Source: Nereocystis luetkeana
Lineage: Eukaryota; Sar; Phaeophyceae; Laminariales; Laminariaceae
DNA: 64,000 nucleotides
Direction of reading: 5' to 3'
Assembly: GCA_031213475.1 (NCBI GenBank)
Contig: JARUPZ010000024.1
Location: 5,674,038-5,738,037, forward strand
This document shows, piece by piece, positions 1,476 to 62,100 of the stretch. The translations under genes were made by a program, and so were the position numbers. Under the pieces are notes generated by a model, which was given only the letters and a program-made list of their open reading frames with translations, made no database searches and was not told the origin of the DNA. Each line of letters begins with the position of its first letter. Within the stretch, counting starts at the first letter, position 1.

Positions 1476-2037
1476 ATGCGCACTATTTCCCCGAGTAAGA
1501 CATCCATCATCGACGCAATCATTCCCGTTTCTTAGTTCCTGCACTGCTGTGCCTCAGGCAAGGCGAAACCATGCAAAACTACGGCAGTACGTTGTCGGTA
1601 CCGGTCATATGCTCCACCCGACCCCCACTGCCCTGGCGTAGTTATCGCACTTGCGGGTATTGTGGCGGATCCTAGGTTGCGGGTTGCCACGATGACATCT
1701 CGCCATTACCGCAGACCACTCTGTCCCATAATATAATGAACCGTTTGAACACATACCAATATACAAATGTTCCTTACATTTCGGGACTGGATATATATAC
1801 CTGGTACCCGACACAAGCAGCACCGTCGCGGTTACCTATAGCTACATGTTCAATATTTCGGCAGGCAGTCTGTTGGCGGGGGACAGGGAGGCTGAATGTC
1901 TGGGTCTTATTTTCTGAGTGCCACTTGCTGCGTAATCTTGCTATGCGCACCCCGTTACCTGTTCATGCAGAGTAGGAGCCCGTCCAAACGGAGAGTTTCG
2001 AAGCTAAAAAAGTAAAGCGAAGATGAGATACATAGAA

Positions 2038-2140
2038 CCACTCACTTAGATCTCACTCCCTGAGCGTGCTCGGTTGGTACATGCCTGGCCTCTCAGAGTT
2101 CCCACTTGGGAATCGCCTCCTTTCATTACTTGCCGGACAT
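2038..2140. repeat. Dispersed repeat L, copy 1
   Basis: GAGCGTGCTCGGTTGGTACA and CGCCTCCTTTCATTACTTGC recur at 21940-22042. Confidence 0.6.
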
Positions 2141-4673: not shown

Positions 4674-7600
4674 GTAAGCCGGTTCCGTTCGGGTGGCCGT
4701 GTGAATTAATGAGTGCTGCGGTTAATTGGGTGTAGCGGTTTCCCGGATGACGCGGTTCTCCGGCTCGTATGTGTGTTTTTATCGGGTGGTGTGGTTTTCC
4801 GCATGGTTTGGTTTTCTGGGTGGTGTGGTTTCCTGGGTGATTTGGTTTCATGGGTGGTGTGGTTTTGTAGGTGGTATAATTTCCCGGGTGGTGGTTGTAT
4901 GGGTGATGTGGTTCTCAGGACGATGTTATTTCTTCGGCCATGTGGTTCTCCGGGTGCTTTGGTTTTCTGGGTCATGTGGTTTTCCGGGTGGTGTGGTTTT
5001 CCGGATGGTGTGGTGTTCGGAGACATGTGGTGTTCTGGGGCGGTGTTTTTTTGGGAGGTGTGGTTTCCTTGGTGATGTTGTTCTCCTGGGTGGCGTGCTT
5101 TTTTTGGATGCTATGGTTTTTTTGGGTGCTGTGGCTTTTTGGGTGTTGTGGTTTTCCGGGTGGTTCGGTTTTTGTGTGCGTGTTGTGGTATTCTGGGCCG
5201 TGCGATTTTGTGGGGCGGTGTGATTTCCCGGGTGGTGCGGCGTGGTTTTCTGGGTGGCGTGTGAGTTTCCTCAGCGTCTCGTTCGGGTAACTCGATTTTC
5301 GTTTCGTGTCGGTTCTAGTTCGCTGTTGGAAATCGTTCCGAAAGGATACTGCAGTATTAGTACCAGGTACGTATTCAATACTATTGTTGATGGTACGGTG
5401 TGACGGGCAAGATAACGCACCTCCTAGGAAAATCTTGGGGAGCCGATTTTTTTCCGACTGTAGGGGCGGGGGGGGCATAACATATCGTATGTCATGCGTA
5501 TACAACGAAAACGATGGCTTTGGGAGATACCTCATCGACATGTTGCCGTACGACGCATCGCTCGCCGTTTGCTAGTGCTGGTGTATTTATTAACCTGGCC
5601 TCTTTTTTTTTTCTTCTTCTTTCTTTGTCATGCTCCGCCGCCGAAAGTGTGCCATTACGCGCGAGTTAGTGTCAGAATTCCGATGCAATGCGATGAGCGG
5701 TGGGAAACACTTAATTAACCCTCTGCATGCATTACACGTATGATATATATACCAGCTGTATATATTTTTCCATGAAGAATAAAAACAGACACATGAGCTA
5801 TGAGATCGAGAATTAACACATGAGCTATTAGATCGAAAAAGTTCAGTGAATTCCGTCTGTGGGTATGATACCTCGATTTGCGCGAACTATATGTAGATAC
5901 GACTCGCCCTATGTGCTGGACGGGTCGGCACAAAGCTTTGTGCAGGGTGCGGGTCTTATTGGTCGAGGCTAGCCTTGCGGCCGCCCGAATGTTTTTTGGA
6001 AAAACGCCTCCAAAACACGCGGCTGACCGCCCCTGCCGACCTCGAGCCCCCCAAGGGTTAGGATTGGGTTAGGATTAGGCTTGGGGTCGGGGTCGGGGTC
6101 GGATTGGTATGGGCCGACGTGGAAGGTTGAAGTTGACGACACACGTCCTGCACAAAGGTTTCTGTGCCGACCCGTCTTGCACATAGCGGAAGCATATACA
6201 TACGGGTTTTATAGCACCTCGTGAAGGATAACATCGTACCCGGGGGGGTGTACTCGATAGGAGAGATGTACTCGATCTCATCATGCATGGCGGTAGTCGT
6301 ATGACCATAGGGGGGTTGAGAGAAGGGACACGGTATTTTTGCTCAGAATGCCGCTGAGAGTAAAACCTCCCACTACAGCCAATGGTTGAACTAAAGGGAT
6401 TATTGCGGATAGTAGGACCCCTTCCCCGAACTAGTACCCCCTCATTGTATACACACGAGCTCACGGCCACCCCCCGAGGTCTTGTCATTCCGTTCCGTGT
6501 GGACCCCGAGGTGCAGACCAAACTCGGTGGGCACTCCACACCTCAGGACCACGCAACAGAGAGCCCGATTGGGGCGTCTGCCCCACATCATTATTGTGTT
6601 TTCAAGGATATTGCATGGTACTATTACTGCCGGTGTAGTATACCCTGGGGTTAAAAATGTGGTTTTGTATGGGCAGTATAGTACAGGTGGTACGGGGGAC
6701 CATAGTAAATAGGACCTACGGTACACACAAAAACCTACATACATACCCTTTTTTTACGACCAGTATTTGGTCCTATTTACTATGGCCCCCGGTAATAGTA
6801 AGTGCTGGAGATATGTACGCACGTATTATACCGTGAGTAGATACTGGCCGAGTATGTACCGAGCCCTCGTGCACACAGCATGGGTGTGTGCAGCAGCACA
6901 AAAAACTACCACGGTATATATTTACCCATTTTCACCACCAATATTTGGTCCTACTTACTATGGTCCCCCGTGATATTACGTGCTGGAGATGTGTACGTGC
7001 CGGAAGGTATTATTATACCGTGAGTAGATACTGGCCGAGTATGTGCCGAGGCCTCGTACACACAGCATGGGTGTGCGCAGCAGTAGTGTGTATCGCGTGT
7101 GTCGTTGCGTTCTGATAAGAAACGATAAAACCTTCAAGGGGTGCCAAAGGGGAGAAGTGGACGAGAGCCTCAACGATGATGATAGCATCGACCGCATACG
7201 TGTACATATATACCACGCGCTGGACGGGAATATAGGGAACGCTTGGTATGTGTATTCATATGTGAACGGTCCTTGCATTTCCGTCCAGAGTTGCAGCGAC
7301 CGGGCGCTTCTGGGGTTCAAGTAGGGGATAAAACGTTGAATATCATCGAGCTGATCGCAACCCTCTACTTGTGGATCACTCACTCGATACTGTGACCAGA
7401 TCACGATTTCCTGCTGTAGACCATCTACATGTAATTTAGAACCTGCGCTTGCCGTTATCTTGTTCTGGGCAAGAGTCATATCATACAGATCCCTCAAATC
7501 TTACAAAAATCCGAGAGCGGCGCACTTGTGTCCAAAAGCCGTTTCATACACAGATCCAGATTTCCACTTGGAAAACGTGATCTACAGTAGATATTGCAGG

Positions 7601-10600
7601 TCTTACAAATCAGGGATCTATCTTTCCCCAAAGATATAGATCACTCATTGCGGGTCTCATATGTCCGATCTGTGACTGCAGATGCAAATATCTATAGGTA
7701 GGGATCTTATCTGCCGGATCTGTGAATGCGAAAGCTAAGATGTAGATCTTTAAATGGGGATCTCATCCGTCCGATCTGTGAATGGAGATCTGATACGTCC
7801 TATGTGTGAACTGGGATCTGATCTGTGTCTGATCTGTGAATGGGGATCTGATCTGTCTCTGATCTGTGAATGGGGATCTGATATGTTTGACATGTGATTG
7901 AGGATCTGATCTGTCTTATCTGTGAGGGGAAATCTGGTCTGTCTGATATTTTGAATGTGCACCTGATCTGTACGATCTGTAAAGATTCGAAAACCGGAAC
8001 GGAATTAATTCCACTGGAAGGGGTTCACCCCGGACAGATTCGAAATATATTTCCACCAGATGATCTACTGCAGATCTTTCATGGCAGATAGATAGATAGA
8101 TAGATAGATAGACCTATGCTCTGTATGATCTGTATGTATGATCTGTATGATCTACATGATATGCATGATCTACAGTAGGTCATGTGGCCATGTGGGAGCC
8201 GTATATTCCGCACGGTCTACAGTAGTATCAGCACATGTTTCGTGGACTGGATCTATCTGTACTACTGGTACGCAGATCCTGCGCAACTCCTCACAACAAA
8301 CGGCAGGCGAGGAACCAGATCCATCTACAGATATATATCGTGATCAGCTCGATGTGTGCACTACGTGTGAGGCACGTTCGGGGAATGCCACCTCGTACCG
8401 TGTAACGTACATCTGGCAAGCTATACTGGTATAGCGTTTAACACACCTACTAGTTGGTATATTCTGTAGGGACTTTTTTTTTCTTGCGTTAAAAAATGAT
8501 TAGCGGACAGCGCAAGAACGCGAGTGGTCAATAGCAACATTCGATCATGAATCGAGGAGCAGCTGGAATGCTAAACCCTATGCGTGATTTATAAATGAAG
8601 GCACCCACTGGGGGGAGGAGAAGGGACGACTACCTGTGACCACGGCTTGAAGCTGGAAAGTAAAAAGTGATGATAATTTTAAGAAAAACACGCATACACG
8701 TACACGCACATATCGGACGAATTTCTCAAAGCTTGTTTCTCGACAGCAACGAATGAGTACGCTCCCCCTGTGTTGGGGGGAAATTGGCTCGAAAATTCAC
8801 CCCAACGCCTCGGACAGATCAGATAGATATAAGAGGATCTAGATGATCTACAAAGGTTGCTCGCCTGCCGTTGTGAGAGGTCGTGCAGGATCTGCCTTAC
8901 AGGGCAGATCAAGCCCAAGAAGCACGGGGTACTGTGGATCATGCGGAATATACGGGGGGGGAGTCCACCCGGCAGAATGAGCTATTTACGGGGGGCCATA
9001 GTATATAGGAGCAAATATTGTAGGTAAAAAATAGCAAAATATCTAAGTTTTTGTATGGACCGTAGGTTCTATTTAATGTGGTCCCCCGTAATATATTTGT
9101 AGTACGGGGGACCATATTAATGAACCCTTTTAGTGCTGCAGTCCTGTTTCCGGGACTAACCACTCTAATTCCGAGTGTTTGGTTTCCTAAACGGGACTGC
9201 GACCCTAAAAGGGTTAACAGTTAGTGATCAGGACCCATCATTAAGTCAAAAACCTATGTATTCCAGTATTTTTACTATGAGCATATTTGGTGCTGAATAC
9301 TATCGCGGGGGACGATAGTAAGTAGGACCAAATATTGCTAGTAATAATAGGGAAATATATATGTTTTTGTACATATCGTAGGTCCTATTTACTATACCCC
9401 CCCCGTAATATTACCAATACCATCTTGTTTTATTTTATTTTTTCCTCCGGCGGATCGGTAAAATTAAAGCTTCACCCCTTTAGAACCGCAGTCCCGTTTT
9501 GGGGACAAACTACTTGAAATTTGGGTGGTTTGTCCCCACATATGGGACTGCGGTTCTAAAAGGGTTGAGCTCACCACACCTCGACGTTCAAAGCTCGTGT
9601 CGTGTGTCATCAATTTAACCCATAGGTCCCGTATACCACTATTAATACGTTCGCCCCTACTAGCCAACTACCTACTAGTGCGGGGGACCATACAAAGTAG
9701 GACCAAATATTGTTCGTAAAAATTGGGAAAATTATAGGTTTTTGTGTATACCATTGGTCCTATTAACTATGGTCCCCCGTAATAGTGCGGGGGGGCAGAG
9801 TAAGTAGGACCAAATAATGTTAGTAAAAATTGGGAGTGTATAGGTTTTTGTGTGTACCCTAGGTCCTACCAGGTACTTAATATGGTCCCCCGTAATAATA
9901 CGGGGTACCGTAGTAATCAGGACCCATCATGTACGCAACAAACCGTATATTCCAGTATGGCACATTTTGGTCCCGATTTCTCTGTTCCCCCGAAATAGGT
10001 GACGGGGAATAGATCTTCCCTGGATGATCTACGGTAGATGGTGAAGTAAGAACGATCTGTGGATGATCTGGCCGAGACCGAGGTTTTCACCATTGTTTTG
10101 GTACCAGCCTGTGCAGAGATGGCGACCAAAACAATGGTTGAAACTTTTGGCGTCGTCTCAACCGTCGCACGACCAGCGCGAGAGAGCGACCAGCAGGATT
10201 TTTGGCATCATTTCCCCCCCCTCTGAAGTTGGTAGAGGGTTAGTAACCCTTTAGTACCGCAGTCCCGAGTTGGGGACAAACAGGTCTAATTCCAAGTGAT
10301 TTGTCCCCAACAACGGGACTGGGGTTCTAAAAGTTTTAGAACCGCAGTCCCGTTTTGGGGACAAACCAGTCAAACTTCAAGTAGTTTGTCCCCAAAATGG
10401 GGCTGCGGTTCTAGAGGGGTTAAATGGGGCTACCTACTACTACAACTGTAGTTGTACACTACATACAGTACTGTAGTCCGGGTACCTGCTGTAGACTTCA
10501 ATATAGTAGTTCGGCTACCTACTACTGTACACTACTGTATACTACGTGCTCGTACAGTGCGTTGGTCCGGCTATCTACTAAATACTGTAGACTACAGTAC

Positions 10601-13600
10601 AGTAGTCCGGCTACCTACTGTACACTACATACAGTGTAGTAGTCCGGCTGCCTACCGTACGATACCGTGCAGTAGTTCGGTAACCTACTGTACACTGCAG
10701 TACAGTAGTCCGGCTACCTACTGTAGACTACCAGGTACCCGGTACAGTAGTCCGGCTACCTACTGTGCGCTAAAGTTGTAAATCCGGCTACCTGCTGTAC
10801 ACTACAGTACAGTAATCCGGTCACCTCCAGTACCCTACAGTAGAATATTCCGGCCACCTCCTGCACTCTACTCGTACAGCAGCAGTCTTGTAACGGCGAC
10901 ACTTTTCAGTTTTTCCGATGCGGAAGACGAAGTAAATACCTCTCCTTAAAAAACTATTCATACTGCTGGATCTGGATTTTTTTTTTCGTGTACGGTACAT
11001 ATCCGCGTGCCGTGCATGAGGTCCTCGTTAGTTTTTTCGCTTGCTTGTGTTCTGATTGTCCCTCCGCGCCGTTCATTCCCCGGACAATATTTATCGTTGT
11101 GGAAACATCTGTTTTTTTTTTGTTTTTGTTAGTTGATTTTTGTTTCGTTTTGTTTGTTTTGTTTTGGTCTTTTTTGCACGATTGCGATTGGGTTCCGAAT
11201 AGTTTTTTACAAGCAGTCGTAGTACTTGTTTTTTGCACGCAAACTGTTTATTTACCTGCTTTTGAAGTGGGCACAAAGTGAAAATGCTGGCGTGTGTGTA
11301 CCTGGTACTATTAATAGGTACCTGGTATGTACCAATATTTTCTGCGAGCACATACCTGGTACGATTTTCTGGTGTGCATAGGCCAAAACCAGGTGCGTCG
11401 ACGGGTCTTTGACCCGACCCGCGGGTCGGATCAGGAGGTCTTCTCACGGGTCGGGTCGGGTCGGGAGGTCTTTAAAATCTCACTGGGTCAGGTCGGCGGG
11501 TCGAGTTGGATAGCCCGATCCGACCGGACCCGATCCGACCCGCGAGTTTTGACCCGGCCCGCGAACAGGTCAAGACAAGGGACCCCTTTCGAGATGGCTG
11601 AAATAACCGACCCACCCACCAACGCTTACAAGAAGTTGACGACATGTTACAACTATCCTGCTGCGCGAGTTCCGAGCGACAGCCATATGGCTGCGCCGCC
11701 TTTCACATGGTTTTTGCTGGGGCCTCTGGAGACAGTCTGTCCGGGCGGGTACCATACTGGCTGTAGCTCTGCCGTGCTCAAGAGCACGCGCAAGGCGTGG
11801 AGATATGAGTCCCACCATAAACTTTTGGCGCAGATTGTTGATTGGTATTCATGTCGACCGCAAGCTTTTGAACAGGTGTAAGTAACACACAGACAAAGAC
11901 AGACACAACTAGACGCGAGCGGACGAGGGCAGAAGTTTCCGAACCCTTTTCTCTCGCGGGAAGATAGCAAGGCACGTGCCGTGGTGGGGAGTGGGGAAGA
12001 GAGCCTACCGTCTGACCCCGGATCTGAGTTTCGAGTATCACGGGGAACCATAGTTAACAGGATCTACGGTACACACAAAAAACTACACATTCCGCTATCT
12101 TTGCTAACAATATTTGGTCCTGTTTACTATGCCCCCCCCGTAATAATAGGAAGGAGGGAGAGAGAACACAGGGGCGAAGATAGTGAATGGGATGGGAAAA
12201 CAGACACACGCACGCACGCACGCACGCGCGTCGGTGGTCAACATGTAATCTGGGTTTCGATAGTAATTTTCCCGTTCTTCGGCGTTGATCTCTCGGCGGG
12301 CTAAGCCCTCGATTTTGCTCATCTCCTTGTTTTTTTTTTTGTTGTTGTTTTTGTTGTTGTTGGTGTTGGTGTTGGTGTTGGTGTTGGTGTTGGTGTTGAT
12401 GTTGGTGTTGGGGTTGTTGTTGTGCCGCACCACGCCGCGCCGTATGGTGCTGCTACCATCAGGGGAGCATAGTAATCAGAACCCCCAATGGGCCCCCCAC
12501 TCGATGTATCCCCGTATGTTTACACACAGCAGTGTTTGGTTCTGATTACTCTGTTTTTGTTGTTGCTGTTGCTATTGTCTTCAAGCCGTTATTTTCCTAC
12601 CTAAGGCCATTATATATATATACGTAATATACCCCAAAGGGGTCCGTCGTGATTCTTCATCCTGGAGAAATCAGATGCCCCCCCCCCCTCCCGTAAACGT
12701 TGCCCCGATGCTGCCCCCCGTAAATGATGTCCCGGCTCTACGCAGTCTCGTCGTTTTTGTCTGGTCTCAAATCTCATCTCATATCATCTCCCATCTCATC
12801 CTGTCTTGTCTTGTGCTTTCCTCTTTTGCCGGTGGGTGGCCGCGTTTTCGATTCGCTTTCGCACTCGCGACGTGTTCGCTGCCCTATCATACCCCCGCGT
12901 GCTCCCGTTGGGTGTGACGTCAGGTCAAGAAGTGGGAGTTGATGAAAAGGGAAGACCTCGCGCAGATCAACCAGCAGTTCAACGAGATGGAGGCGGTGAG
13001 TGGAGGAGGGGATGGGGGGTTCGTGGGGGCCCAGAGTTTTCGTACCATGGTACACAATAGTGCTTGCTGATTATGGTATTTTACCGGGTACCAGGTATGT
13101 GTACACCATTGCCTATTACCTGGCACTGGTACACGATTACCGGAGACCATATTAAATACCTGGTACCTGGTAGGACCTATGGTATACACAAAAACCTACG
13201 TATTTCGCTGTTTTTACTGACAATATTTGGTTCTATTAACTATGGCCCCCCGTAAAAGCAATCCCATACAGCAGTAGGTTTGCCTCTTTTCAGGGATCTT
13301 AGAACGGTGGAAGAGAGTACCGTATCACACTGGGTGATAAAACAACACACCCCCTGGGACGATTTTCAGAGCCGAGGGGCGCACAAAACGAAAATGGTGG
13401 CTCTGGAAATGTCTCGTCGAGAAGGTTGCATAGACGCATGCATCGCTCGTCGTATTCAGTACGCCCTCCCCGTGGTCCAGAAACCCAGCTTTGAAAAACG
13501 TCCAAGGGGGTGTGTTATCTTATCACGCTGGTGTGATATTACGGGGGGCCATAGTTAATAGGACCTATGGTATACGCAAAAGAACTATGTACGAGTATTT

Positions 13601-16600
13601 ACCTATTTTTACTCACAATGTTTGGTCCTCTTTACTATGGCCCCCCGTAATAGTGTTGCACGGTAATCAGAACCTTATACGCTTGGTAAAAATACCGGAA
13701 TGGAAAGATTTTTGTGTGTACGATGGGTCCTGATTGTCATGCCCCCCCCCCCCCCCGGAATATGGTGCGTTGAGATTGGAGGCCCCTTAAATAGATACCA
13801 ACACCCCTTTTCGAAGTTGGTAACCGCCCCTTGTAGATAATGGTGAGCAAAAACGATGCTCAGGAGCTTTGAGGTCCCTCGTATTTCCTTTTGAAGGGGC
13901 TGGGTGCTGTGTGAGCGTACCACTGCTGTGGAGGGGGATATAGGGACCGTTTAGGCACTACGATGGACATCGAAACGATCCTTACATTTACGTCCAGAAG
14001 GGTAGCTGATGAAATGAATACGACTGCTGTAGTTGAAGATGTCAGGAGACAGCATTTTCACCCCTTTGACAGACGGAAAAATTGCCTTGACACGCCTTGA
14101 CTCTTGACTGACACCAAACTACGAGGTTAGTGTGGAACACTCGGCCCTACACCCTTGACAGCGCACGTCTTGCCTTCCTTGACATGTCTCCTGACATGTT
14201 CGGCTGTAGTAACGTGTGTGACCTCATATCTACAGGACGGGCGAAAATGGCTCGAAACTACGTGTAAGAAATGCCGAGGGGTGGCTCACAGAACAGCACC
14301 TGGATGTCTATACATTTTGGTACATGCATTTACATTTAACTTGAATATATAAATATTCGTTGGTATTTCCTACTGGTATATACGTACATACGGGTAATGA
14401 ATTGTGCACCACCCCCATGGCATGAACGAAATATGGAACAGACGTATTACGCAGCTTGAAAAGTTGAGTGTCAACTACCCAATTTGTCGAACTCACAGCT
14501 GAGGTATATAATAATTTGATAAACTACATGTAATGCTGCTGGTATCTGCCCTCTGGTACGTACCTGATGAGTGTTTCCGATGAACAAGAATATGTATTGT
14601 AAACGCCTGGTTCAAAACTGCGTGATTTTGTGCTCGATTTACCACGAGTAACCATCCTCCGTAGGTAATATCTTGGCATATACAAACAGCAGTGGCGCCT
14701 GAGAAGTGCCGGCTGCCCGCTACATGTATGATACACCCATTCCTTGAACTCTGCAGCGTTAGACTTTTGTCTTCCTCGTATTCGGACTGTATACCCTGAA
14801 TGAGGCCCTATAAGAACCCGTAGTGCGCACGATCGAGGTATCACGCACAGCTTGCGCATATGAGTCTCGACGAAATCCTCGATTTCGCTGAGGTCGTTTT
14901 TTTTAAAATTTTCATGAATAGACAACGGTGCCTGTGAAATCGCTTGGCACTAATGACTGTTACGGGGGGCCATAGTTAATAGGACCTATGGTATACATAA
15001 AAACCTATATATTTAACCATTTTTACTAGCAATAGTTGGTCCTATTAACTTTGGTCCCTCGTAATACCAGGTAGTGGGACTAGCCAGTGTGCCTAGTAGT
15101 TACCTGGTACAGCAGTAGTGCCGGTTGCCGCTACAAAATGCCGCGGTATTTGTTGGCCGGCGCAATTTTTACCGGCACCATATATATTATACCTGGTATA
15201 CATGCAGCGACCACTACCGCCTGTACCGGCATTGTGGAGGATGGTGGCCGATCTTGTCAACCCCATGAAGGTTAGACATGCCACTGCTGTGTGCGTGAAA
15301 TAGGAGGACCGCTTGGTTTTCCTGTGAATGTATAGACGGTCCTTATATTGTCAATCAACCTCATGAAGTTTAGACATGCCACTGCTATGCGCGTGAAATA
15401 GGAGGACCGCTCGGTCTTCATGTGAATGTATAAACGGTCCTTATGTTGATATACACCCAGAGTGGTCGTCCGCATCAACCATGGACTATTACGAAAATGT
15501 GCACCTGGTACCAGGCATATACCATACATGGTTGACGCTCTCTGAGTGCTCGGTACATGTATATCATGCCTGGTGTACACGCACCGAATGTAGTGGATCA
15601 CCTTGGAGTAGTGGCCGGGGGGGGGTGTACTCGATCGATATCGTGCATGGCCGTGGTCGTATTACCATAGAGACCCTCGCATCCCTTCAATGCCGGGACG
15701 GAGCACGTCGGGAGGGGGGGGGGGGGGGGGGGGGGGGTTACTCATTTGTTGCTCGCCTTGGCCATTCGACCGTTCACCACGCATGCCTTTCGCGACGAAG
15801 CACAAGCGGAGGCGGGGTCTTTCTCGTTACTTTTTGTAGGTGGGAGGAGGGAGGGGGGGGGGTCGGCTTTCTTCTTTCGGTGAAAGACATTTCTCGGGTA
15901 CCATTCTGTCTGTCTTGCATTGAAGCATTAAGACCCTTTGTATATTAATATTCGATACAAACGTTCACTACAGTATATATGTTTCGGAACATATTGGTGT
16001 TTTTTTGCTCTCCTGGCCCCTCGCCGCTCCTTTTTATTTCCACTCCCCTCCAACACCCCCCGCAGTGTTTGCCCGTTACCTTGGGACCCAGGACATTTTT
16101 ATCCCCCGGGCCTTGTATTTTCCCACGAGTGACGATGGTTGAGAGACCATCTCCATCGAAAACGAAGTAGGTCCTCCTCGTTTTTTTGCTGGCCCGCCGT
16201 GTAAAAAAAAAAAGTCACGGCGGCGGCGAGGAAGGTGCGCGGTGTCTTACAGGCCCGTTTTTTTTTCCGTTATCCGGCTTTTAGCTTTTACAAGTTTCTA
16301 CAAGTCCTTATCGTCCATTTCGTTTCTTATTTTGTTTTTTTGTTTCGTTTGTGCAGCTCCAACCACCAGCAGCAGCAGCAGCGTCTTTGTCCAAAACCAA
16401 AGCTCCTCCTCATTTTTGCCTTCGTTTTTTGCTGCTGCATTAACAGGAGCAGCAGCAACAGCAGCAGCAGCAGCAGCAGCAGCATACATTCTGATTCGTA
16501 CCTGGTACGAAATTTCCCACCGGAAAAAAAACAATGAATAGAAACTCCGAGATATATACGTTGCCGAAACTCGGACGCACGTTGTCGCCCCTCTCGCTCT

Positions 16601-24660: not shown

Positions 24661-25388
24661 ACCCCCGTTCCCCGTTCTTGTGTCCCAATGCGGCTCGCAA
24701 CGTCGCTCGTAGTTCATTTCTGCAGATTATTTTCGGGATGTGCGATCAGCCTATCACTATCGTTTGGTCGCGAAACTATAATATATCGGTTGCCAGACAG
24801 ACAGGCAGACAGACAGACAAACTAGCGTACAGTAGTGTACTGATTCAGTGTTGCCTGCAGTGTTGCCTGTAGTGTTGCAGTTGGCTGGAGGCGGAGGTGG
24901 GGGAGGGGGGGGGGGCTCTTTGTTGAGTACCTGGTACAAGGTGCTATAGTTTTATTTTTCTTGAGATTTTTGGATTTTCTTGCTGGGGGAGGGAGCTATG
25001 AAATATGATGGTGATGATGTTACGCAGCGCATTAGCTGGTATTAGTCTGTGTGGCGGTAGCGGTGGGGGGTGAGAGAGGGGATGGGGTTTTCTTCGCACG
25101 TATAATTGCTGCCCTGGGTGTTGTTTTTTTTTTTGCCGTGCGAGTTATGGTGGGCCGTGCGTATATGAATGGAAAGTCTCCTCGCGCGTGCGGGAGGGGT
25201 GTGCGAAGGGATGTATACGCGCGGGTTCCATCGGAGCTGACCGTGCGGTCGCTGTCCGAATGAAGCACGCGGGCGGCGTATCGTCACGCACGTTTCTAAC
25301 TATGATATCTCCTTGAGTCGTTTTATTGTGGTCGTTGTTTTTGTTTCTGCTGCAATCTGATGATTTACACACCCAACTCTTCAGTCTC

Positions 25389-31205: not shown

Positions 31206-31517
<312 letters not shown>

Positions 31518-44792: not shown

Positions 44793-46708
44793 TTTCTCAC
44801 ATGAACGAGCACATCGCCGTACTCGAAATAGCGGGTTACATGTGGCAAAGCTCCTTTGTACTCGTTCGTATGGCCTGCAGGTAAAAGCAAAGAAGCAATA
44901 ATAAACGAAGTCGCAGCCAGCAAATAAATAAATGTGCACGCTGCGCATACATATCGTACGCACCATATGTATGGGAGGACAGAGGTTCGTACCTGATACC
45001 GGGTAGTTTTGTACGGCCACTACAATCAAGTCAAGAGCAGTCAGACAGTACCTACGGCATGGAATGGAAGGCAGTAGCGTGCGCGAGCGTTGGCCGGGGG
45101 GGGGGCGGGGGGGGTCTCTCTGCACCGCTCCACCCCTGTAGCGCTCCACCCCCATTAGCAACTTGCGCATGTTGTCTTGGGTGCAGGTACGTATGAGTAG
45201 ACTCCCACATTTTTTTTTTCGCAGACAAGAGAGGACTGAAAAACAATATACCTGGTATACAACTTCGTCGTACACGTACGACCTATATTATCCCCTCTGG
45301 TAGATCCGTATGACACAACACAAGTAAAAAAAAACAGAGTTGAGAAAACTGATGTGGAGGGGGGGTGGGGGGGGGGGGGGGGGGGGCGGGGGGGGGGGGG
45401 GGGGGGGGGCTCCGAGCGGTTGCAGCGCGTTAGTTTTGCTTGATTTCGCTTTGATTTGGTCCAGACTCGTGGTGTGGTGGTGGAGGAGGAGGGCTTCTGT
45501 AGGAGTCGAATGTCCTTTTAGCACCGCACTCGCATATGTGGGGACAAAGCACTTTAATTATAAGTAGTTTGCCCCCAAAACGGGACTGGGGTCCTAAAAG
45601 AAGTCGTTTGGGCTGGTTGGTGTTACTCGCCCGGTTACTTGCCCGGCGGTGGATACATTTTTTTTCTTTGGACGTGCCTACTGGTAGCTTTCGAGAGTTT
45701 TTTTTTTGTCTTGGTTTTCGCCCGGTGGCTGCATACGAGCACGTATCCACCTGGTAGCTGGTACGAGGCACGAACCCCTCCTGTGTTGTCCCTTTTTAGC
45801 TCGCGACATCCCCCGGGATTTCGAGTCAACCAACCACAATCCCGAAAGCGACGACCTTAACGAAACACTCGACTAAATAAAGTCTGAACACCCGGAGACA
45901 AACGTAACACCAAGCAAGCACGCCAGCAGAGCAGCAAACGCCCGAGGTGTCGTTGGGTCTTAGTTTCGCTCATCTGCTGCCATCATTTTTCCCGGGAGCG
46001 TTATTACTACTAATATTAATAGCGCACAGAGTGCAATACGTTCGTACCAGCAGTGCGTTTCCTGGCTCGACCTCTATTAATCAATAGGGTGTTGCTGTAC
46101 GACGGTGCATTCATATGCATGCATACATACATACGAGTCAGACTTGCAGACCCCAACACCCCCTGTGGCACCGCCTCTGACGGCATTAAAAAATGTCACT
46201 CTTGTGTATATGTAGTTTAGTCCGTGTGCAAGTCCGCCTCACAAGCGCTTCTCAGAAATATGCAGCTCACCCTTTATGCAACTCGCCGAACACCTCACGG
46301 CGCTTCGTGCTTGGTGCTAGCAGTGTCTGCCTGGCCGTGAGAACCCGACATGCTCCGTCCCGGCATTGATGCGAGGGTATATGGTCATACGACTACGGCT
46401 ATGCATGATATCGAGCACAACCCCCCCCCCCCCCCCTCCCACCTAGTACGACGAAATAGCACGGTTTGATATCACGCCAGAGCCCACATCATATTTAGCC
46501 CAATCCCCCCCCCCCCCTCTTCCCTCTCCTTGCTTTCGGGATTTCAGACGAGAAAAGAGACCCTCCCCCCTTATAGATGGAAATCACAGTGAGCGCCCAA
46601 ATGTTGAAGGTGCCTGGTGCCTTTATTAGGAGTAGGAACGATGCCCCGTCTCGAAAGAGATGCGCGGTCGATGGTCAAATGGCTAAGGCAAGCAACAAAT
46701 GAGTGCGC

Positions 46709-46740: not shown

Positions 46741-49700
46741 CCATATATCTCCTTTCTTTTGGGAATTGAAAGAGGGGAAAAGACCCCCCCCCGCCCGATG
46801 CTCACGGCGCTTTGCGCTTGGTGCAAGTAATGTCGACCTGGTCGGTGAAGAGGCGACGTGCTCCGTCCCGGCATGGTAGGGATCTATGGTGGCTGATCTA
46901 TGGCCGCACGACTGCGCCGATACATGGCAATGGTTACCCCCCCCCCCCTGCTCCTTCTCGAAAGGCATGCGGGGTCAATGGTCAAATGACGAAGGCAAGC
47001 AACGAAGGAGGGACGCCCCCCCCCCCCCCCCCCCTTTATCCTTCTGCCTTCTTAAGCGACCACAGAGAGGGGGAAAGAGACGAATACATTGGTGGTGGTG
47101 GTGGTGGTGGTGGTATTGGTGGTGGTGATGGTGGTGTTAGTGTTGATGCTGGTGGTGTCGTCGGTGGTGGTGGTGTTGGTTGTTGCTCTCCCTTTGACTC
47201 GTGGCCTTAATCTAGCCCGTGATCCCCTGCACAAGAGAGGCTACAACAACTCTGGTGTGCATTTCGTTACGTCTTTGATGACTGCGGCGCTGGGGCAGGG
47301 CAGGTGGGATGCAGGTTTCGTGGCCCAAGCACCAGAACCCTCGGGGTTTTTCTTTCCACGTCCGACTCCAGAATGAGGGGAGCCTTGTCTCGTCACCGCG
47401 GACTGGATTTACGCTGTTAACCCTTTTAGTGCTGCAGTCCCGTTTTGGGGACAAAGCACTCAGATTTCAAGTAGTTTGTCCCCATAACGGGACTGCGGTT
47501 CTCTTGAAGCTTCAGAGGCGAAAATCGATGATGAAAAAGCGAAGATTATTATTTTGTACAGCGAATGGCCACTGCTGCGTCATTGGGTGTCATGATACAG
47601 AATTGGTATCCGAGTTGCACAGTGCAGGGACTTGCACGGCACAACAGGTGCAGCATGATCCAACCCTCACTCATGGGCTCTCACGCTGCTCATATAGACG
47701 GCTGGCGACACCGAAGGGCGTTGTGTCCAAATATGTCAGGAGACATGTCAAACTCGTAGGAAAATCGTGCGCTGTCAAGGGTTTTAGGGCCGCTTGTTCC
47801 ACACCAAAATAGTTTGGTGTCAGTCAAGGCACGTCAAGGCAGTTTCTGCTGTTTTTGTCAAGGGGTGGAAATGCTGTCTCCTGACATCTTTGGTTATTTC
47901 GTTGTTCTGGTCGGTATCGCTTTTAATAGGTCTCAATGGGTTAAGGAGTGCCGGCTCTCTCATACGTACGAGAAAAGCACCACGAAAAAAATCTTAGCCC
48001 TTGGGTAAATATTTGCCCGGAAATCTCTTCAGAAATTCGGGAACGGTTGTGCTGAGAAGTTAGTATTGGACTCTGAACACACCCTTTTATATACCGCTAT
48101 GGTCGGGAATATCATCACCGTTTGCTTTTATTATCAGAGTCCAAACGTTTATTATATTTCCGTCCAGCGTGGTATCCAGTAAGAAATCTAGCCTGTGGGC
48201 CAATTATCCCGGTTTCTTGTGAGAGGGCCAGTAGTACTGCTGGTACTAGAGTACATACATACCTGGTACGCTTACTTCTGATGCGATCTCTGTGCATATT
48301 TATACTGCTGCTGCTGCTGTTTTTACGTTTTCGCTGGTGTATAATATGGCGATGAGCTAACGTGAGAACAACGCGAACGAGATTGCGAGTATATAGTGGT
48401 GCGGCACCGGCGCAGCATGATATGTACCGACTAACGTATGATATCACTCTTGCTAATACTATGCTACCGCCCGTACCAAATGTATCGTACCAGGGGTATG
48501 TGGTACATGTATACACCTGGTGTACGATAACACGCAAGATGACACACACGCTCGGAGAAATCTCCAAGCTGTATTTATTTATTGGAGAGTGCAGAGCATC
48601 GCCGAGCGAATGATGGTATGCGTCTCGTGTCTCGTGGTTCCTCTACGTATATATGGAACGACCCCGATAAATTTTTTCGCCGTGTGTGGGCGTGCGTGTG
48701 TGCGTGCCCCCCCCCCTGTTCCGGAGATAATCCACTAGGAAAATCACCACGGCGGGGTCTGTTGTCATGCATGTATGTGTTACCTCGTGCGTTTATCCTA
48801 CTGCGATTCGACCTTGTGGTGCGAGCAGACCCATTGCGTCCTGCAACTATGTTAACGATTTTAACAATAAGAATGTTGATATTTCGTTATTCCGTTCCAC
48901 TCTGTCCGTTATTATAAGGAATATTTCTATCTTGATATTCCACACAGACCGTCCTTATGTTAGGGGGCAAGAGGGGTATACCACACGTTCATTTTGGCGT
49001 TTGAGTCGATTCCTCCACAGGGCGGGGTCCCAGAAGGGCTGGTAATATTTACTATGGTTATTTTTTGGTCATCTTTATGGTTGTTATGATCACCTCGGAC
49101 CCTCGGGCGCGCCTATTAAAAATTGCAACTCGCGAACTGCAGCACATGTCATTGCAATACACCCGCCACTATAAGTGTTTCTAGTGTTTACGTGGGGGGG
49201 GCGTTTGTTTTTCGGATCAACCGCAGTAACGACAGCCCACACCTGCGTGTGTTTGGTCCGAGCAGCCACTACACCACACCCTCTCGCTGATCCCACCCGA
49301 ACTAGACGATCCCCGGACCCCGGACCCTCGGGCCTGGAGCCTTGTGTCGTATGTACGTAGCTGTAATAACAACGCTCATTCGTTTTTCACTTGTATCATA
49401 GACTCTCGATCCACGGTAGGCTACGAATTGTACAAAGCACTGCTTGCTGCTGTTGTGTGTACGCCTGTAGCGTGTGTGTTCTTCACGTTAAACCGTTCTT
49501 TCCACCCGTCGACATCCAGCACAACCAGTGTCCGTGCCGATTCTTCAATCCTAGAAGAGATACAAGTTCTGTGGTCACCAAGCTACGCCACAGAGATACT
49601 ACGTTGCCACGCATGCAGCAAGCACAGCAGTGGGCAATGCAATGCCATGTCATCATGCTAGGTACGACAGGCACGACATGCACATTCTATGAAATAGATA

Positions 49701-52323
49701 AACGAGTGTACGAACCAGGAACGAATAATATCTGATTAGCCGGCAACGTTCCAGGTTCATTATCTCCATTATACCCCGCTATAAGTTGTAAGTTGATGTT
49801 GCGGACCCCCCCCCTTTTCCTTCCACAACCTTTCCGACCCCTACGCACATACCAAATCTATCCCGAAATATAAGCATCATTTGGCTTAACAATTAGTTTT
49901 AGACCTGTGCTTGTGTTACGGGACAGATTGGTATGTACGCGTAGCACCTGCCCACCAACCGGCGAATCATGAATGGTTACATCGTTACACTTCGGGCACC
50001 GCGGTATTGCGAGGTATTGCGCGGTGGTGACGCCTGCCGGTGCCGTAAAAACTACGAAGTGAAGGCGGTCTTCCTTCAACTTGACGGTACCGGTATTTAT
50101 TTGTAGACGGGGTATATTGAGGCGCGGACGTTTTATGGGCTTTGCCTGCTTAGTTACGAGGGCCTGTGAGATCGAGATCGCTTGGCACCTGATGGGATTC
50201 ACCAGTGTTGTAGTGTGCGGAGTAATTAGTGCCGGTTGGTTGCCGGTATATATAGGTGTTGCTGGCTGCCGCATACCAGGGCATATACCGGCACTATGCA
50301 GGGACCACTACCCGTGTACTCGTGTACAAAATACCACACATCAGGTAGATTTATTTTGGTATTACTCTGGCCAGGAATATAAGACCCATTCGATATTCAT
50401 GTGAGAACGCTGTTATTAGACGCGGATTATATTCACGGCTAAATTGGTCTGTACTTGACTGCTGTCGAAAGGGTTATGACAACGCACGACTATGTCCGCA
50501 AAGGTAAAGACCTTTTAGGTCGTTATTACAATAACGGAACGGTCCTTACATTTACGGACAGAGTAGGATCATATTCCATTTCATTTCTTTTCTTTTCAAA
50601 ACTCCGTGAGCCGTGAGACAGCAGTGCGCGATCGAGAAATTCCTCGAAACTCTTCTTAATCAGGGCGCTCGGTGTGGCTATTATTTTATATGATACTCGA
50701 ATGTTTTTCGTATGCGTTTTATGTCCACCGGAGACCCAACGCTGCTTGTAATGAATTGCAACAACGGGCCAGCACTGACTGGTCCATGGAATAGTGAACG
50801 CGAGTGAGTGCAACTTTTGAAGGTGGAAGACAAGCAATGAGGCAATGGGGGGGGGTGGCGTAACTCCTATGAAATTGTGGTACGATATAAAGATTCCTAC
50901 CAGTCAGTGTTACATTTTCGTGCCGCACACAGGGGCAGCTTAGGGATAAGACGGCAGAGTGGATGGGTGATAATGCGTGTAGGGGTGTGTTGCACGGTGG
51001 TATTATACCAGTACCTCTTATCTTAGTCTCACCGCCTCGTTGTGCAGTACGTAGCGGCTGGCGCGATGGGTTACTTTCAGTTTGTTTTCGCCACGAGCAG
51101 AAGGAGCACAGGTTGTACGTGGTACGTGATAAGTATACGAGGTACCTGGTATGTTTTATCATAGTATTACGGGGGGGCATAGTTAATAGGACCTACGGTA
51201 TACACAAAAAGTTATATGTTCCCCTATTTTTACCAACAATATTTGGTCCTGTTTACTATGGGCCCCCGTAATAGTGGTTCACTATTAAGAAAACCCTTGC
51301 AGGACCGCAATCCCGTTTTGGGGACCAAGTCGTAGTCAAATTCAAAAGGGTTGAAAGTCCAAATAGCGTACGGCGGCTACGTATGATACCGATATGCACA
51401 TTTGCCCTGTTCGTACTACTGTGTTCCCTGGAATTTTTTGTGATTGGTGTGGTGTGTTTCCAGATCTCACAGCTGATGTTTTATTTATTTTCTAATGTAC
51501 TACCTGGTACAGCAGTACGTACGTACGACTATCGCGGGTGTTCTTCGTTCGAGTGTTTGTGCAAACGAATGTGTGTTACATATGCGTTGGCTTGATAATA
51601 ATCCATCCTCCCGAGGGAGTGGCATGTTTTTCCAGAGATCCCCCACCGATCTCCGCATCTTACTCGCTATATTCCCGTCCCACCATCCTCCTCCTCTTCC
51701 TACACCGCCCCTTACCCCCCCCCCCGCCCCCCGTCTCCTTCTCCTCCTCTTCCTACCCTTGTCCCAAACTCGACTAAGGTCATGCATGATAATGAGTACA
51801 CACCCCCCCCCGCCTCCTCCCGCCTCCTCGCCCCCCCCCGCCGCCTCCCTGCCCCCCCCCCCCCCCCCCGCCTCCTCCACAAATAACAGCATGCGGCGAA
51901 CTACTCGCACCCCGATAACGCCTCTGATCGGGGACCGGGGACGGGGACGGGAAAATGGGCGGAAGCGACCGAAACGGGGGGGGGGGGGGGTGTCAAGCTC
52001 CCCAGTGGTGGTGGTGGCGGTGGGGGCGGGGGTGGGCGAGGAAAGGCAGGTGGGATGTGGGCGGCCAAGCGCAGTACCATATCGATGTCGAGCGCGTCGA
52101 CACTTGTCCCTGGTATGTCGCCGGCGCAGACACCAGCGGAAGTCGATACGGATGTCGGTGGTGGTGGTGGTGGTGGCGATTTCGGCGCCTCGAGGCTGCG
52201 GCGACGGCAGGGGAAGGAGGAGGATGGGGGAGTGGAGGGAAGTGGGGTTCAGTTCGGGGGGGGACACGCGAAGACTCTGGCGGAGCAACGGTCGAGAGGG
52301 AGCAGCAACAGCAGCACCAACAA

Positions 52324-52365
<42 letters not shown>

Positions 52366-59104: not shown

Positions 59105-62100
59105 AGAGACATGAATCAGCAGATCGGCGAAGGGACAAGGTGGGTGGGTTTTGGGTGTGTCAGTAGGGAGTGGTGGTTGTTCGTGGTGGTGGTGCTCGTG
59201 GTGTTGGTGCTCGTGGTGGTGGTGGTGGTGTTGTGCTGTTGTTGTTTCCCACACCAAACAGTCGACATGATCTATCATGTGTTTACTCCGTGATTGCAAG
59301 ATATTCAGGCTCAAACGTCTAGAAAGGGACAAAGCAAAAGACAAATGGAAAGCGAAATCAACTGAAAAACTAAGCATTGTATAAGGCCACCATATCACCA
59401 CGCGTACTCCACCCCTCCCCTTCCCCCACCCACCACACTCTCCGTCCTCCTGTACTACTTCAGGTGGTCCAAGGTGTCTTTTCTTGGTCAACCTTGAGCG
59501 TTAATCCGGGCGCACTGGGTTTCCACAAGAGCGCCAGGTTGCTCATGTGTGGAAGGGAGTAGGAGGGAGCAGGGGCGAATCGCCGTCAGGTTTTCCTAAA
59601 TATGGCGCTCTTTGCCCCCATAGCTTTGCTGGGCGCCGAGACTTCGCGCTGCCCTCCGACTGTACGGGGGAGTGTTTCCTCCCGTTTTGTTTCGACTGTG
59701 CGGGGGAACTATTCCTCTCGTTTTTTCCAACGTATCGGGGGAATTGATAACCTCGTTTTTTTTGTTCACCACACACTCCGTAAAGAGTTCTTTGAGAACA
59801 CGAGGGATGTCTTAACCTGACATTATACCCTGGTATCCCTTTTTTCGCATTCGGGGAGGGGGAGATCACTTGAAAACAGAGTAGAATATTGTTGCAGCAG
59901 TAAAAAAAACTGCGGTACTATTATAGCAACCAGTAAAGCGTAAGTGGGTGCTTTGTGTGGAAAAAGCGAAAGGGGTGTGGGGCTCTTATGCCCCTGTTTT
60001 TTTGCTCTTTTCCGGTACGTTCTGCTCTTTTTCTTCGTTCTTCGCCTTGCCCTTTCTTCAACTCGTTTTTGCTCTTTGCTCTCCTTTTTTCGTTTGCTCA
60101 TTTCGTTTTTCGGTGGTTCAGCCCCTTCATTTTCTCCAGGCCCGTCCCTCTTTCCTTTTTTCCCCCATTCCTTTTTCTCTGTTTTCCCCTCTGCATTCTT
60201 CTCTTTTATCGCCGTCAATTTGTGTTTTTTATGGTTGGTGGTGGTGTTGATGATAGTGGTGGTGGTGTTGGTGATGGTGGTGCTGGTGGTGTTCCTTGTT
60301 TGCCACGCCGCGGGGTTGACGGTGGGTGCTGTGGGCCTTGTTTCTCACTGTCCTGCTGGATTTGACCGGACGGCTACGGATTTTTCTCCAGCTGCTTCTT
60401 TGTGACTCCGCTCAAGCTTTTGGCTTGGCCTGCCTTGAGCTTGGCTTGTTGGCTTGGCTTGAACTTGAATCGGCTCGGGCAGGCCTTGAGGTTGGCTTGG
60501 GCGTTGCTTGACTTTTGGCTTGGTGTGCTCTTTGTGAGCAATTGCGGTTTTTCCACCTCTCGTTGGATACGAATACCGTGTTACTGCTATTATAGTGTCT
60601 GAGTTAAGTGGGCGGGGTGGAGGGATGTTCAGCGGAGGCCTTTTTCTGACCTTTACAGTATTTAGTGTTTTGTGGTTTGTGTTTTTTATTATTCTTCTTC
60701 TTAAAATCAGTACTAGTAGAAGTATGTAGTAGCACGTTCAGATGTGGACCGTGAAGCCTTGCACGTGAGGCGGGATGGGGCAGGGAGAGTACTTTGATTG
60801 ATATGATATGATGTGATTGATTCATTGATGTGATTGATTCATTGATTGATTGATTGTTCGATTGATTGATTACAACCCTCATATAGTAGTACCGTACCAC
60901 GCAGGAGGAACCCTTCCGTGTTGTTTTTTGTGTGTCTTATATGTACCAGATTCTCGTATGTCCCTGGTTTTATATTGTTCGTGACGCCGTACTATCATAG
61001 TATGTACCAGGTATGTCTCTGGTTTTGTATTTGTTTGTGGCGGCTTTTTCGCCCGGGGGTCTTGGTGTTCCTCTTGGGGCGGGGAGTGGAGGGAAGAAGG
61101 GGTAGGAATAGGTTAAGTAGAGGCGCAAGTACAGGCCCGCACTGCTGTGTACTTCTATATACTTTTTTTCACAACAGCTAAGATAGAAAAACGCTCGACT
61201 CTTCGTACCGGAGGGTGTGTAGCATGCGGAGTTGAGGGCCCTGAGGAATATGATGGAGCGCGGTGAGAATGTTGTTGGGGTTTCAACGTTCTTGTGGTGG
61301 ATTAGTTGGGGGATCGGTGTGCACACAAGCGCACACAAGCGCACACAAGCGAGCAAGCGTACAAGCAAAGGCAGGCCCGCAAGTAAAGCAGGCGAAGCAC
61401 GACGCACGGGCACGGACCGGAACGCTAGTTGATTCATTGACGATTGATGACCGGCGCTGTGCGTGCTTTGCCGTATAAATTAAAAAGCTGCAGCAGTAGC
61501 AAACAAACGAACGAACGCCGTCGGCTAGACTGCATTCAGGAAAAACAAAAAGAAAAGAAGAGAAGAGAAGAGAAAACACGAGAAAACAAATAGGGTGTTC
61601 GCGTGTTAGTGAAGCCTTTTGTTTCGCGCGGTCTTTCTTTTTCTCGATTTTTTTTTTTTTACGATGCCACACCCCTTTTTGAGAGGGGGGTGTGGGTGGG
61701 CACTATTAGCAGCTATCTAGTGGTTTCAGCGGTGAACACTCCCGTGACCTTAAGGGCGCGGGGATTGTTAGTGGTATATTGCCGCGTGGTGTGAGCGGAC
61801 GTATAGTTAGGTCAGTTGTTCTCAAGAGTTTGTTTACCACACGTTGTGCGGTGTTTTTTCCTTCCTTCCTTCTTCCTTCTTGGGATTTTTCTAGTATTTC
61901 TCTCGATTTTTTTCGGCAAGCTGCCTGACAGCCGTAGGAGCGGAGCTAGTATTTTGAGGTGGTGATGCGTTTTGTGTTTGTTTGTTTCGTGCTTATTAAA
62001 TTGATTTTCCGTTGCTTTTTTGGGGGGGGGCACTATTATCGCAAGGGACGAAACACGAGGAAGAAGCAAACGAAGGAGACGAAGCAGGGTGGGGACTTAT

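What the first reader, a model, noticed from the sequence alone, without database searches (positions are those of the whole stretch)
1799..61014. TACCWGGTA (TA-CCWGG-TA) is hugely over-represented and arises by precise insertion at TA sites
By eye there are about 39 copies of TACCAGGTA/TACCTGGTA, e.g. near 1799, 5361, 9867, 11300, 13157, 15063, 19255, 23069, 26239, 34220, 41669, 48261, 51144 and 61006. Uniform base use predicts about 0.5 in 64 kb. Family A copies give before/after comparisons: AAATAGGACC becomes AAATA+CCTGGTACCTGGTA+GGACC (13159-13172), a similar 14-mer sits at 26233-26246, and GGTCCTATTTAC becomes GGTCCTA+CCAGGTA+TTTAC (34222-34228; similarly 9869-9875). The inserted unit is 5 bp (CCWGG) plus a duplicated TA, sometimes doubled. 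Tc1/mariner transposons duplicate TA and leave scars made of the element's last few bases; Sleeping Beauty leaves TACWGTA. By analogy CCWGG, with its ambiguous central base, looks like the repaired scar of an unidentified TA-specific transposon with a 5-nt overhang. The doublets would be repeated visits to the same TA. Alternatively it is itself a tiny self-propagating sequence.
Basis: partly seen in the sequence, partly recalled or inferred. Interest (0 to 1): 0.9.

Follow-up and report, generated by a model that had tools for sequence, protein, structure and literature searches.

The report
Mass transposon scars, their maker unseen
This large eukaryotic genome, probably a brown alga's, is peppered with about 182,000 copies of a seven-letter insertion that looks like the repair scar of a jumping gene that cuts in and out at TA, yet no element with the matching ends has been found.

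Summary
The window holds 39 TACCWGGTA in 35 blocks (0.56 expected). The 465-Mb genome holds 182,395 (reversed-pattern control 1,744), with 15,917 doublets and 1,689 triplets. In a palindromic repeat (family A), CCWGGTA units are inserted exactly at one TA that paralogues keep empty, in copies no more alike than scar-free ones, so insertion seems recurrent. The target is RTAY-like. A 6-nt form, CCAGGG but not CCTGGG (13 vs 1), points to a break whose overhang came from an end reading 5'-CCAGGG. Best explanation: footprints of a TA-specific cut-and-paste transposon with a mostly 5-nt stagger. Passages I read give 2-3 nt for Tc1/mariner.

No element with CCWGG ends was found: not in 316 kb, not at 20 of 23 candidate sites, and the pogo-type copies whose ends I resolved read CAGTG. 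The centre base depends on the flank, which a symmetric mismatch model does not predict; 4-nt forms do not follow the target rule. Scars decay as if neutral (about 6.6% per site). The scar reading is favoured; the agent is inferred, not shown.

The parts
1798..1806 (.). TACCTGGTA scar
5361..5369 (.). TACCAGGTA scar
9867..9875 (.). scar in family A repeat at the GGTCCTA hotspot; paralogues empty
   Evidence: (50 of 50 spanning alignments empty)
10729..10744 (.). CCAGG unit followed by a CCCGG unit (7-bp register)
11299..11307 (.). TACCTGGTA scar
11319..11327 (.). TACCTGGTA scar
11353..11361 (.). TACCTGGTA scar
13082..13097 (.). CCGGG unit followed by a CCAGG unit
13157..13172 (.). doublet scar in family A (repeat copy 13145-13243) at the AATAGGACC hotspot
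   Evidence: 50 of 50 empty
15065..15073 (.). TACCAGGTA scar at the edge of a family A copy
   Evidence: one spanning alignment only
15101..15109 (.). TACCTGGTA scar
15190..15198 (.). TACCTGGTA scar
16499..16507 (.). TACCTGGTA scar
19255..19270 (.). doublet scar CCAGG-TA-CCTGG
19558..19566 (.). TACCAGGTA scar
19740..19755 (.). doublet scar CCAGG-TA-CCTGG
23068..23076 (.). TACCTGGTA scar
24928..24936 (.). TACCTGGTA scar
25684..25693 (+). 6-nt variant TACCAGGGTA
26231..26246 (.). CCCGG + CCTGG doublet in family A hotspot
   Evidence: 40 of 40 empty
27166..27174 (.). TACCTGGTA scar
27881..27889 (.). TACCAGGTA scar
28167..28175 (.). TACCAGGTA scar
33929..33938 (-). 6-nt variant TACCAGGGTA (minus strand)
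34220..34228 (.). scar in family A (repeat copy from 34131) at the GGTCCTA hotspot
   Evidence: (52 of 55 empty)
34390..34398 (+). 5-nt variant TACCTGATA
35383..35391 (.). TACCAGGTA scar
35574..35582 (.). TACCTGGTA scar
39913..39921 (.). TACCTGGTA scar
40078..40086 (.). TACCTGGTA scar
41665..41680 (.). doublet scar CCAGG-TA-CCTGG
41820..41828 (.). TACCTGGTA scar
43556..43564 (.). TACCAGGTA scar
44990..44998 (+). 5-nt variant TACCTGATA followed in register by a CCGGG unit
45249..45257 (.). TACCTGGTA scar
48260..48268 (.). TACCTGGTA scar
51143..51151 (.). TACCTGGTA scar
51501..51509 (.). TACCTGGTA scar, last before a 9.5-kb stretch with long open frames and no 5-nt scar
59826..59835 (-). 6-nt variant TACCAGGGTA (minus strand)
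61005..61013 (.). TACCAGGTA scar
62332..62341 (-). 6-nt variant TACCAGGGTA (minus strand)

Best explanation
TACCWGGTA is the repaired footprint of a TA-specific cut-and-paste DNA transposon. Shown: a 5-nt core plus a duplicated TA is inserted precisely at pre-existing TA sites; the same TA of family A is filled in many copies, with CCAGG, CCTGG or CCAGGG, and units stack in 7-bp register; sites prefer R-TA-Y; the 6-nt form reads CCAGGG, not CCTGGG. Inferred: an element whose ends read 5'-CCAGGG inserts at RTAY and duplicates TA. On leaving, its non-transferred strand is cut about 5 nt inside each end, so each flank keeps a CCAGG overhang. The overhangs pair through CC/GG with one central mismatch and are sealed as CCAGG or CCTGG. 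Because scars vastly outnumber any recognisable element in what I could read, the element would have to be low-copy and move without multiplying, or be excised almost without fail, leaving one scar per visit over a long time.
For:: excess in window and genome; empty paralogues; scar-bearing family A arms are not more alike (mean identity 0.68 among 4) than they are to empty ones (0.69); the hotspot word TTGGTCCTACCWGGTA occurs 218 times; of the first 100 listed, 60 CCAGG and 40 CCTGG (hand count; family A context not checked for each); 11 of 20 fetched hotspot candidates are 6-nt CCAGGG scars in family A. (316-kb sample): TACCAGGGTA 13 vs 0.7 expected but TACCTGGGTA 1 vs 0.5; 9 of those 13 have R before and Y after (hand count). 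R-TA-Y contexts are 35% of TAs but 69% of scars; one-mismatch neighbours are in excess (about 6.6% per site), as for neutral relics; unit numbers 182,395, 15,917 and 1,689 fall off almost geometrically, as repeated visits would give. (passages of PMC7827188): Sleeping Beauty leaves 3'-overhangs whose repair gives footprints identical to the overhangs.
Against: No element with CCWGG ends was found in 316 kb by a TIR-pair scan or among repeat boundaries, nor in the 75 bases printed at each of 20 of 23 candidate sites. The pogo-type TA elements whose ends were resolved have other ends. A 5-nt stagger lies outside the 2-3 nt given for Tc1/mariner in the passages read. The centre base depends on the flank: A at -3 is found 59 of 107 times left of CCTGG and 35 of 107 left of CCAGG, p = 0.0015, which random mismatch repair between identical ends does not predict. 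The 4-nt forms TACCAGTA (33 vs 15) and TACCGGTA (28 vs 9 counted on both strands, that is 14 palindromic sites) are in excess but follow the R-Y rule only in 36% and 47% of sites, near the 44% of any TA-N5-TA and not the 70% of scars, so they may not be footprints. Rice Mariner polymorphisms show more insertions than excisions (59:21 and 81:31; passages of PMC4423477), the opposite of what is seen here.
Confidence: 0.57

Rival explanations
1. Orientation-marked scar: the two transposon ends are not identical (one reads CCAGG, the other CCTGG), so the overhangs are fully complementary and W records the orientation of the element that left.
For: W correlates with flank asymmetry (-3 A, 37 vs 13 discordant pairs, p = 0.0009; -1 C, 7 vs 22 of 107). 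6-nt scars are almost only CCAGGG (13 vs 1).
Against: Both W forms occur at the same hotspot word (60:40 in the first 100 of 218), and both 6-nt orientations occur there, so orientation control would be weak.
Confidence: 0.2
2. Direct micro-insertion: an enzyme (for example a domesticated transposase or a templated end-filling activity) writes CCWGGTA at RTAY with no long element involved; each insertion recreates the target, so the sequence spreads by itself.
For: No element found. Doublets are about 12 times the naive expectation from scars per TA.
Against: No enzyme known to me does this (recall). The 6-nt CCAGGG form fits end repair better. Telomerase templating fails: the telomere is TTAGGG, and mixed CCAGG/CCTGG doublets are common (19 of the first 59 listed, hand count). 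Target preference could supply part of the doublet excess.
Confidence: 0.13
3. Near-quantitative (programmed or germ-line) excision of many elements, as for ciliate internal eliminated sequences, so that the assembled genome shows only junctions.
For: Scars without elements; scars in each of the 24 sampled 10-kb stretches.
Against: Scars are decayed to different degrees like inherited relics. They sit in old repeats and in duplicated segments on both copies. I know of no such process in brown algae (recall; no search made for it).
Confidence: 0.04
4. A compositional or selected motif (for example a protein-binding site) rather than an insertion.
For: Palindromic shape.
Against: Exact +7/+14 insertions relative to paralogues; 100-fold excess over the reversed control; neighbours show neutral-looking decay.
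Confidence: 0.02
5. Tandem slippage of a 7-bp unit as the source of copies.
For: Doublets and triplets in register; homogeneous doublets are in the majority (40 of the first 59 listed, hand count).
Against: Single units predominate, unit number falls near-geometrically, and mixed doublets are frequent. Slippage cannot create the first unit at an empty TA.
Confidence: 0.02

Closest known systems
Sleeping Beauty / Tc1-mariner excision footprints (TACWGTA, as named in the finding)
   Same: TA target duplicated; few-nucleotide core from the element's end, palindromic except for an ambiguous centre; repaired break
   Different: 5-nt core here instead of 2-3 nt; scars far above recognised elements in what was read; transposon not identified
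Rice Stowaway/Mariner footprints
   Same: TA sites, relic residues from element ends (passages of PMC3660474)
   Different: rice excisions are heterogeneous with deletions and fillers and are fewer than insertions (passages of PMC4423477); here one core dominates
pogo/Tigger-type DDE_1 elements of this genome and Ectocarpus
   Same: TA-flanked element with 26-bp TIRs in L055 (one end also seen in L053); transposase 88% identical over 87% of the query to an Ectocarpus protein
   Different: ends are CAGTGGGGGG, so the expected scar is TACWGTA; TACWGTA copies do not show the RTAY rule (17% of 138 against 70% of 146)
Interstitial telomeric repeats
   Same: short units in register
   Different: telomere here is TTAGGG; units are mixed in orientation

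Membership tests
Tc1/mariner transposon footprint | insertion at TA with TA duplicated | tested here: met
   empty paralogues
Tc1/mariner transposon footprint | core palindromic except for its centre, centre in two forms | tested here: met
   133 sites with A/T in the centre against 12 with C/G in the 316-kb sample
Tc1/mariner transposon footprint | 2-3 nt stagger | tested here: not met
   the dominant core is 5 nt; 2-3 nt according to passages read
Tc1/mariner transposon footprint | an element whose ends match the scar | tested here: inconclusive
Tc1/mariner transposon footprint | transposase of the superfamily in the genome | tested here: inconclusive
   PF13358 none (the control rang in 3 of 14 genomes); PF03184 28 matches; the two copies with a resolved end have other ends
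pogo/Tigger family of L053/L055 as the maker | TIR begins CCAGG or CCTGG | tested here: not met
   TIR CAGTGGGGGGCCCTATATAGTGCAGG
family A (PIF/Harbinger-like) or family B (TTAA-type) as the maker | end sequence that could leave CCWGG | tested here: not met
   repeat boundaries read TTACGG/CGGGGG and ACCCTT/ACCCCT
Interstitial telomere repeats | unit equals the telomere repeat | tested here: not met
   TTAGGG arrays at both ends of C1 and within the last 1.5 kb of C2, which then ends in a TTTAAC-like repeat; none at the start of C2
Ciliate-type internal eliminated sequences | filled copies in the germ line | not testable with these tools
   no germ-line or strain data

The most novel reading that the evidence does not exclude
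There is no ordinary transposon behind the scars: a TA-directed activity writes CCWGGTA at RTAY sites, or removes inserted elements almost without fail, and each scar is itself a fresh target, so that the smallest self-propagating insertion I know of has reached some 182,000 recognisable copies.
Probability: 0.16. Interest if true: 0.95.

Novelty: new variant of a known kind. Interest (0 to 1): 0.72.

Why it matters
If these are footprints, they are a countable record of cut-and-paste jumps on a scale (one exact scar per 2.5 kb) that element counts would miss. They would show a transposon that jumps often yet hardly multiplies, with an unusually wide stagger. The scars would also date jumps, mark targets and predict the element's end sequence (CCAGGG), so the finding is directly testable. 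If they are not footprints, a new kind of self-spreading micro-insertion is at work.

Tried and rejected
Telomerase templating of CCTGGTA: rejected, the telomere is TTAGGG. Family A, the abundant MITE, as maker: rejected, its boundaries are TTACGG/CGGGGG. Family B (TTAA-type boundary) likewise. Pogo-type element of L053/L055 as maker: ends do not match. A short TACCTGG...TCAGGTA unit in L013/L026: a few related stretches, no symmetric family established, dropped. An apparent 1-kb element with ends starting near TACCAGG in L010: it is a hAT-like element (TIR CAGGGATGCG, 8-bp duplication CCTGGTAC) that landed in a scar. Filled sites at the family A hotspot: 20 of 23 candidates fetched. 11 are 6-nt scars in family A; L039, L042, L044 and L050 look like decayed or altered single scars; L046 and L049 look like altered double units; L034 has family B sequence starting right after CCTGG (not followed); L047 and L051 are not family A; no new element is seen in the 75 bases printed. 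The 3 not fetched all read CCAGGG, whose control count was 3. One copy of a DDE_Tnp_4 (Harbinger-type by eye) family was partly read (L057): no CCWGG end in those 901 bases. An early reading that TA at +/-7 bp is a strong target rule was too strong: 29 and 19 of 107 against about 7% background; TA at -4 is as frequent (32 of 107 left of CCTGG, 16 left of CCAGG). 4-nt forms as further footprints: in excess, but they fail the R-Y rule, so I no longer count them as support. An earlier count said 12 six-nt scars at the hotspot; the right number is 11. Literature: TACCTGGTA and TACCAGGTA gave only listings of unrelated papers; searches listed no report of this; only listings were seen for those, except the passages named in the text.

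Genome-wide counts of TANRTACCTGGTA, TANRTACCAGGTA, TACCAGGGTA and TACCTGGGTA were wanted and never answered.

Full report
WHAT IS THERE. The window holds 39 TACCWGGTA (24 CCTGG, 15 CCAGG) against 0.56 expected from 100 shuffles, maximum 3. They form 35 blocks. The window lies on contig C24 of a 465-Mb eukaryotic genome. That genome has 182,395 exact copies, against 1,744 for the pattern read backwards. Two units in register: 15,917 against 2. Three: 1,689 against 0. In 24 stretches of 10 kb taken at round positions there are 80, at least one in each, so the window (39 in 64 kb) is denser than average but not special. A scan of the viral contigs found the doublet in 9 stretches.

THE GENOME. 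The only named relative of a window frame is an Ectocarpus protein (49% over 21% of the query). A transposase of the genome is 88% identical over 87% of the query to an Ectocarpus protein. TTAGGG arrays stand at both ends of C1 and near one end of C2. A brown alga or near relative is likely; the species was not identified.

IT IS AN INSERTION. For 122 blocks in the 316-kb sample (window plus L001-L028) I joined the flanks at one TA and searched for paralogues. 25 blocks had a non-self paralogue across the site. Of 315 such alignments 294 were empty without net gap; 5 had +7 and 2 had +14, being duplicated segments that share the scar; the other 14 differ in other ways. The clearest host is family A, a palindromic repeat with boundaries TTACGG/CGGGGG. 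Its TA in GGTCCTA/TAGGACC carries the unit at window 9867, 13157, 26231, 34220 and at L027:592. In 59 family A arms matched by a regular expression, four carried a clean scar (three 5-nt, one 6-nt) and a fifth a scar with extra sequence; none of the 13 arms reading TG in place of TA carried one. In a stricter set of 44 arms, 4 had scars. Each was closer to some empty copy (0.80-0.89) than to any other scar-bearing copy (0.64-0.76). As there are 40 empty arms and only 3 other scarred ones, this alone is weak; but mean identity among scarred arms (0.68) is not above that between scarred and empty (0.69) or among empty arms (0.71), so a scarred subfamily is not seen. The 20 stretches had too little flank for that test. 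Genome-wide the word TTGGTCCTACCWGGTA occurs 218 times; the first 100 listed are 60 CCAGG and 40 CCTGG (hand count). With the CCAGGG form at the same TA this makes recurrence the simplest reading.

TARGET. Oriented as CCTGG, 107 unique single scars have R before the first TA in 95 and A after the last TA in about 4%. R-TA-Y contexts are 35% of TAs and 69% of scars. TA seven bases upstream or downstream is enriched (29 and 19 of 107 against about 7%), and so is TA four bases upstream of CCTGG (32 of 107). Doublets are about 12 times what scars per TA would give naively. Target preference explains part of this; whether all, I did not test. Blocks are mildly clustered: of 91 gaps among the first 92 blocks of C1, 11 are under 200 bp against 5.9 expected.

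VARIANTS. Against an order-3 Markov expectation in the 316-kb sample (both strands): TACCAGGGTA 13 vs 0.7, TACCTGGGTA 1 vs 0.5, TACCTGATA 17 vs 2.2. TACCTGATA obeys the R-Y rule in 76% of 17, and 9 of the 13 TACCAGGGTA do (hand count). Shorter forms are less clear: TACCAGTA 33 vs 15, TACCTGTA 10 vs 9.4, TACCGGTA 28 vs 9 (14 palindromic sites), TACCGTA 90 vs 43, TACCATA 52 vs 47. TACCAGTA and TACCGGTA follow the R-Y rule in only 36% and 47% (any TA-N5-TA 44%, scars 70%), so I do not count them as footprints. At the family A hotspot, 14 of the 23 places read CCAGGG (control count 3); of the 20 fetched, 11 are CCAGGG followed by TA inside family A. A break with an end reading CCAGGG gives this. 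This is inference from the counts. Four of the 28 sample loci (L001-L004) had been picked by the doublet search; they are inside the counts and outside those.

AGE. One-mismatch neighbours (8 positions, centre left out) exceed expectation by 0.53 of the intact number, about 6.6% per site. This is what unconstrained relics of mixed age would show.

THE MAKER IS NOT FOUND. A scan for TA-flanked inverted ends (14 bp, up to 2 mismatches, up to 6 kb) gave only scar-to-scar pairs for CCWGG. No repeat boundary reads CCWGG except at scars. The TACCWGG not followed by TA were listed; where continuations are shared, the upstream flank is shared too, apart from the short unit and a 1-kb hAT-like element that sits in a scar. 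PF13358 gives no match in the genome. PF03184 gives 28; four were fetched. In L055 both ends, and in L053 one end, read CAGTGGGGGGCCCTATATAGTGCAGG with TA; in the other two no ends were resolved. PF13359 gives 57, of Harbinger type as judged by eye; 901 bases of one copy were read. A low-copy maker is not excluded: 316 kb is 0.07% of the genome.

HOW IT MOST LIKELY WORKS. Passages of PMC7827188 state that Sleeping Beauty is nicked three nucleotides inside its ends and leaves three-nucleotide 3'-overhangs whose repair gives the footprint; passages of PMC2170065 give two to three nucleotides for Tc1/mariner. With a five-nucleotide stagger and ends CCAGGG the product would be CCAGG or CCTGG between duplicated TAs. 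Difficulty one: W is not independent of the flank (A at -3, 59 vs 35 of 107, p = 0.0015). Unequal ends would explain this, making W a record of orientation. Difficulty two: passages of PMC4423477 report more insertions than excisions for rice Mariner elements and very mixed footprints; here footprints dominate and are uniform. A conservative, highly mobile, low-copy element, or nearly complete excision, is needed.

KNOWN OR NOT. Passages of PMC12477816 list 17 Mariner-Tc1 families in Ectocarpus, and the words footprint and excision do not occur in its main text. Searches for the motif itself and for footprints listed nothing on it in the library used; most subscription journals are not in that library.

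SELECTION. The 9.5 kb between 51501 and 61005, where the long open frames lie, has no 5-nt scar (P = 0.003 for a gap chosen after the fact), as expected if frame-shifting scars are lost from exons. A 6-nt variant lies at 59826-59835.

Noticed in passing
window 9300-9411, 9675-9786, 16675-16786, 17316-17427, 18953-19064, 31205-31316 and others: Family A: about 110-bp palindromic repeat with boundaries TTA/CGGGGGACC, PIF/Harbinger-MITE-like; the host of the scar hotspot.
   Followed up: partly
window 26306-26405, 34692-34791, 39508-39607 and others: Family B: about 100-bp palindromic repeat with a TTAA-CCCTTTTAGAACCGCAGTCCC boundary, piggyBac-MITE-like by its ends.
   Followed up: no
L055:2152-4763 and L053 from about 1168: TA-flanked pogo/Tigger-type element with perfect 26-bp TIR CAGTGGGGGGCCCTATATAGTGCAGG (both ends in L055, one in L053); its transposase is 88% identical over 87% of the query to an Ectocarpus protein.
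   Followed up: partly
L010:5460-6447: hAT-like 1-kb element whose 8-bp duplication CCTGGTAC lies inside a TACCTGGTAC scar.
   Followed up: partly
G000 C1, first 16.7 Mb: None of the listed hotspot scar words (all 23; first 100 of 218) lies before 16.7 Mb of C1, although ordinary scars are common there and two family A-like words occur in L005; C1 may have an unusual repeat history.
   Followed up: no
window 1-909 and 35707-36624: Two segments 94-99% identical, 35.7 kb apart.
   Followed up: no
G000, for example C10:1013897, C12:5719694, C13:273115: A DDE_Tnp_4 family with seven copies of identical score and open frame, so possibly recently active.
   Followed up: partly
316-kb sample: TACGAGTA/TACTCGTA (62 sites), TACWGTA (121 vs 43 expected) and TACCGTA (90 vs 43) are also over-represented; TACWGTA does not follow the RTAY rule.
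   Followed up: no
G000 C2, last 1.5 kb (L032): After a TTAGGG array the contig ends in an irregular TTTAAC-like repeat.
   Followed up: no
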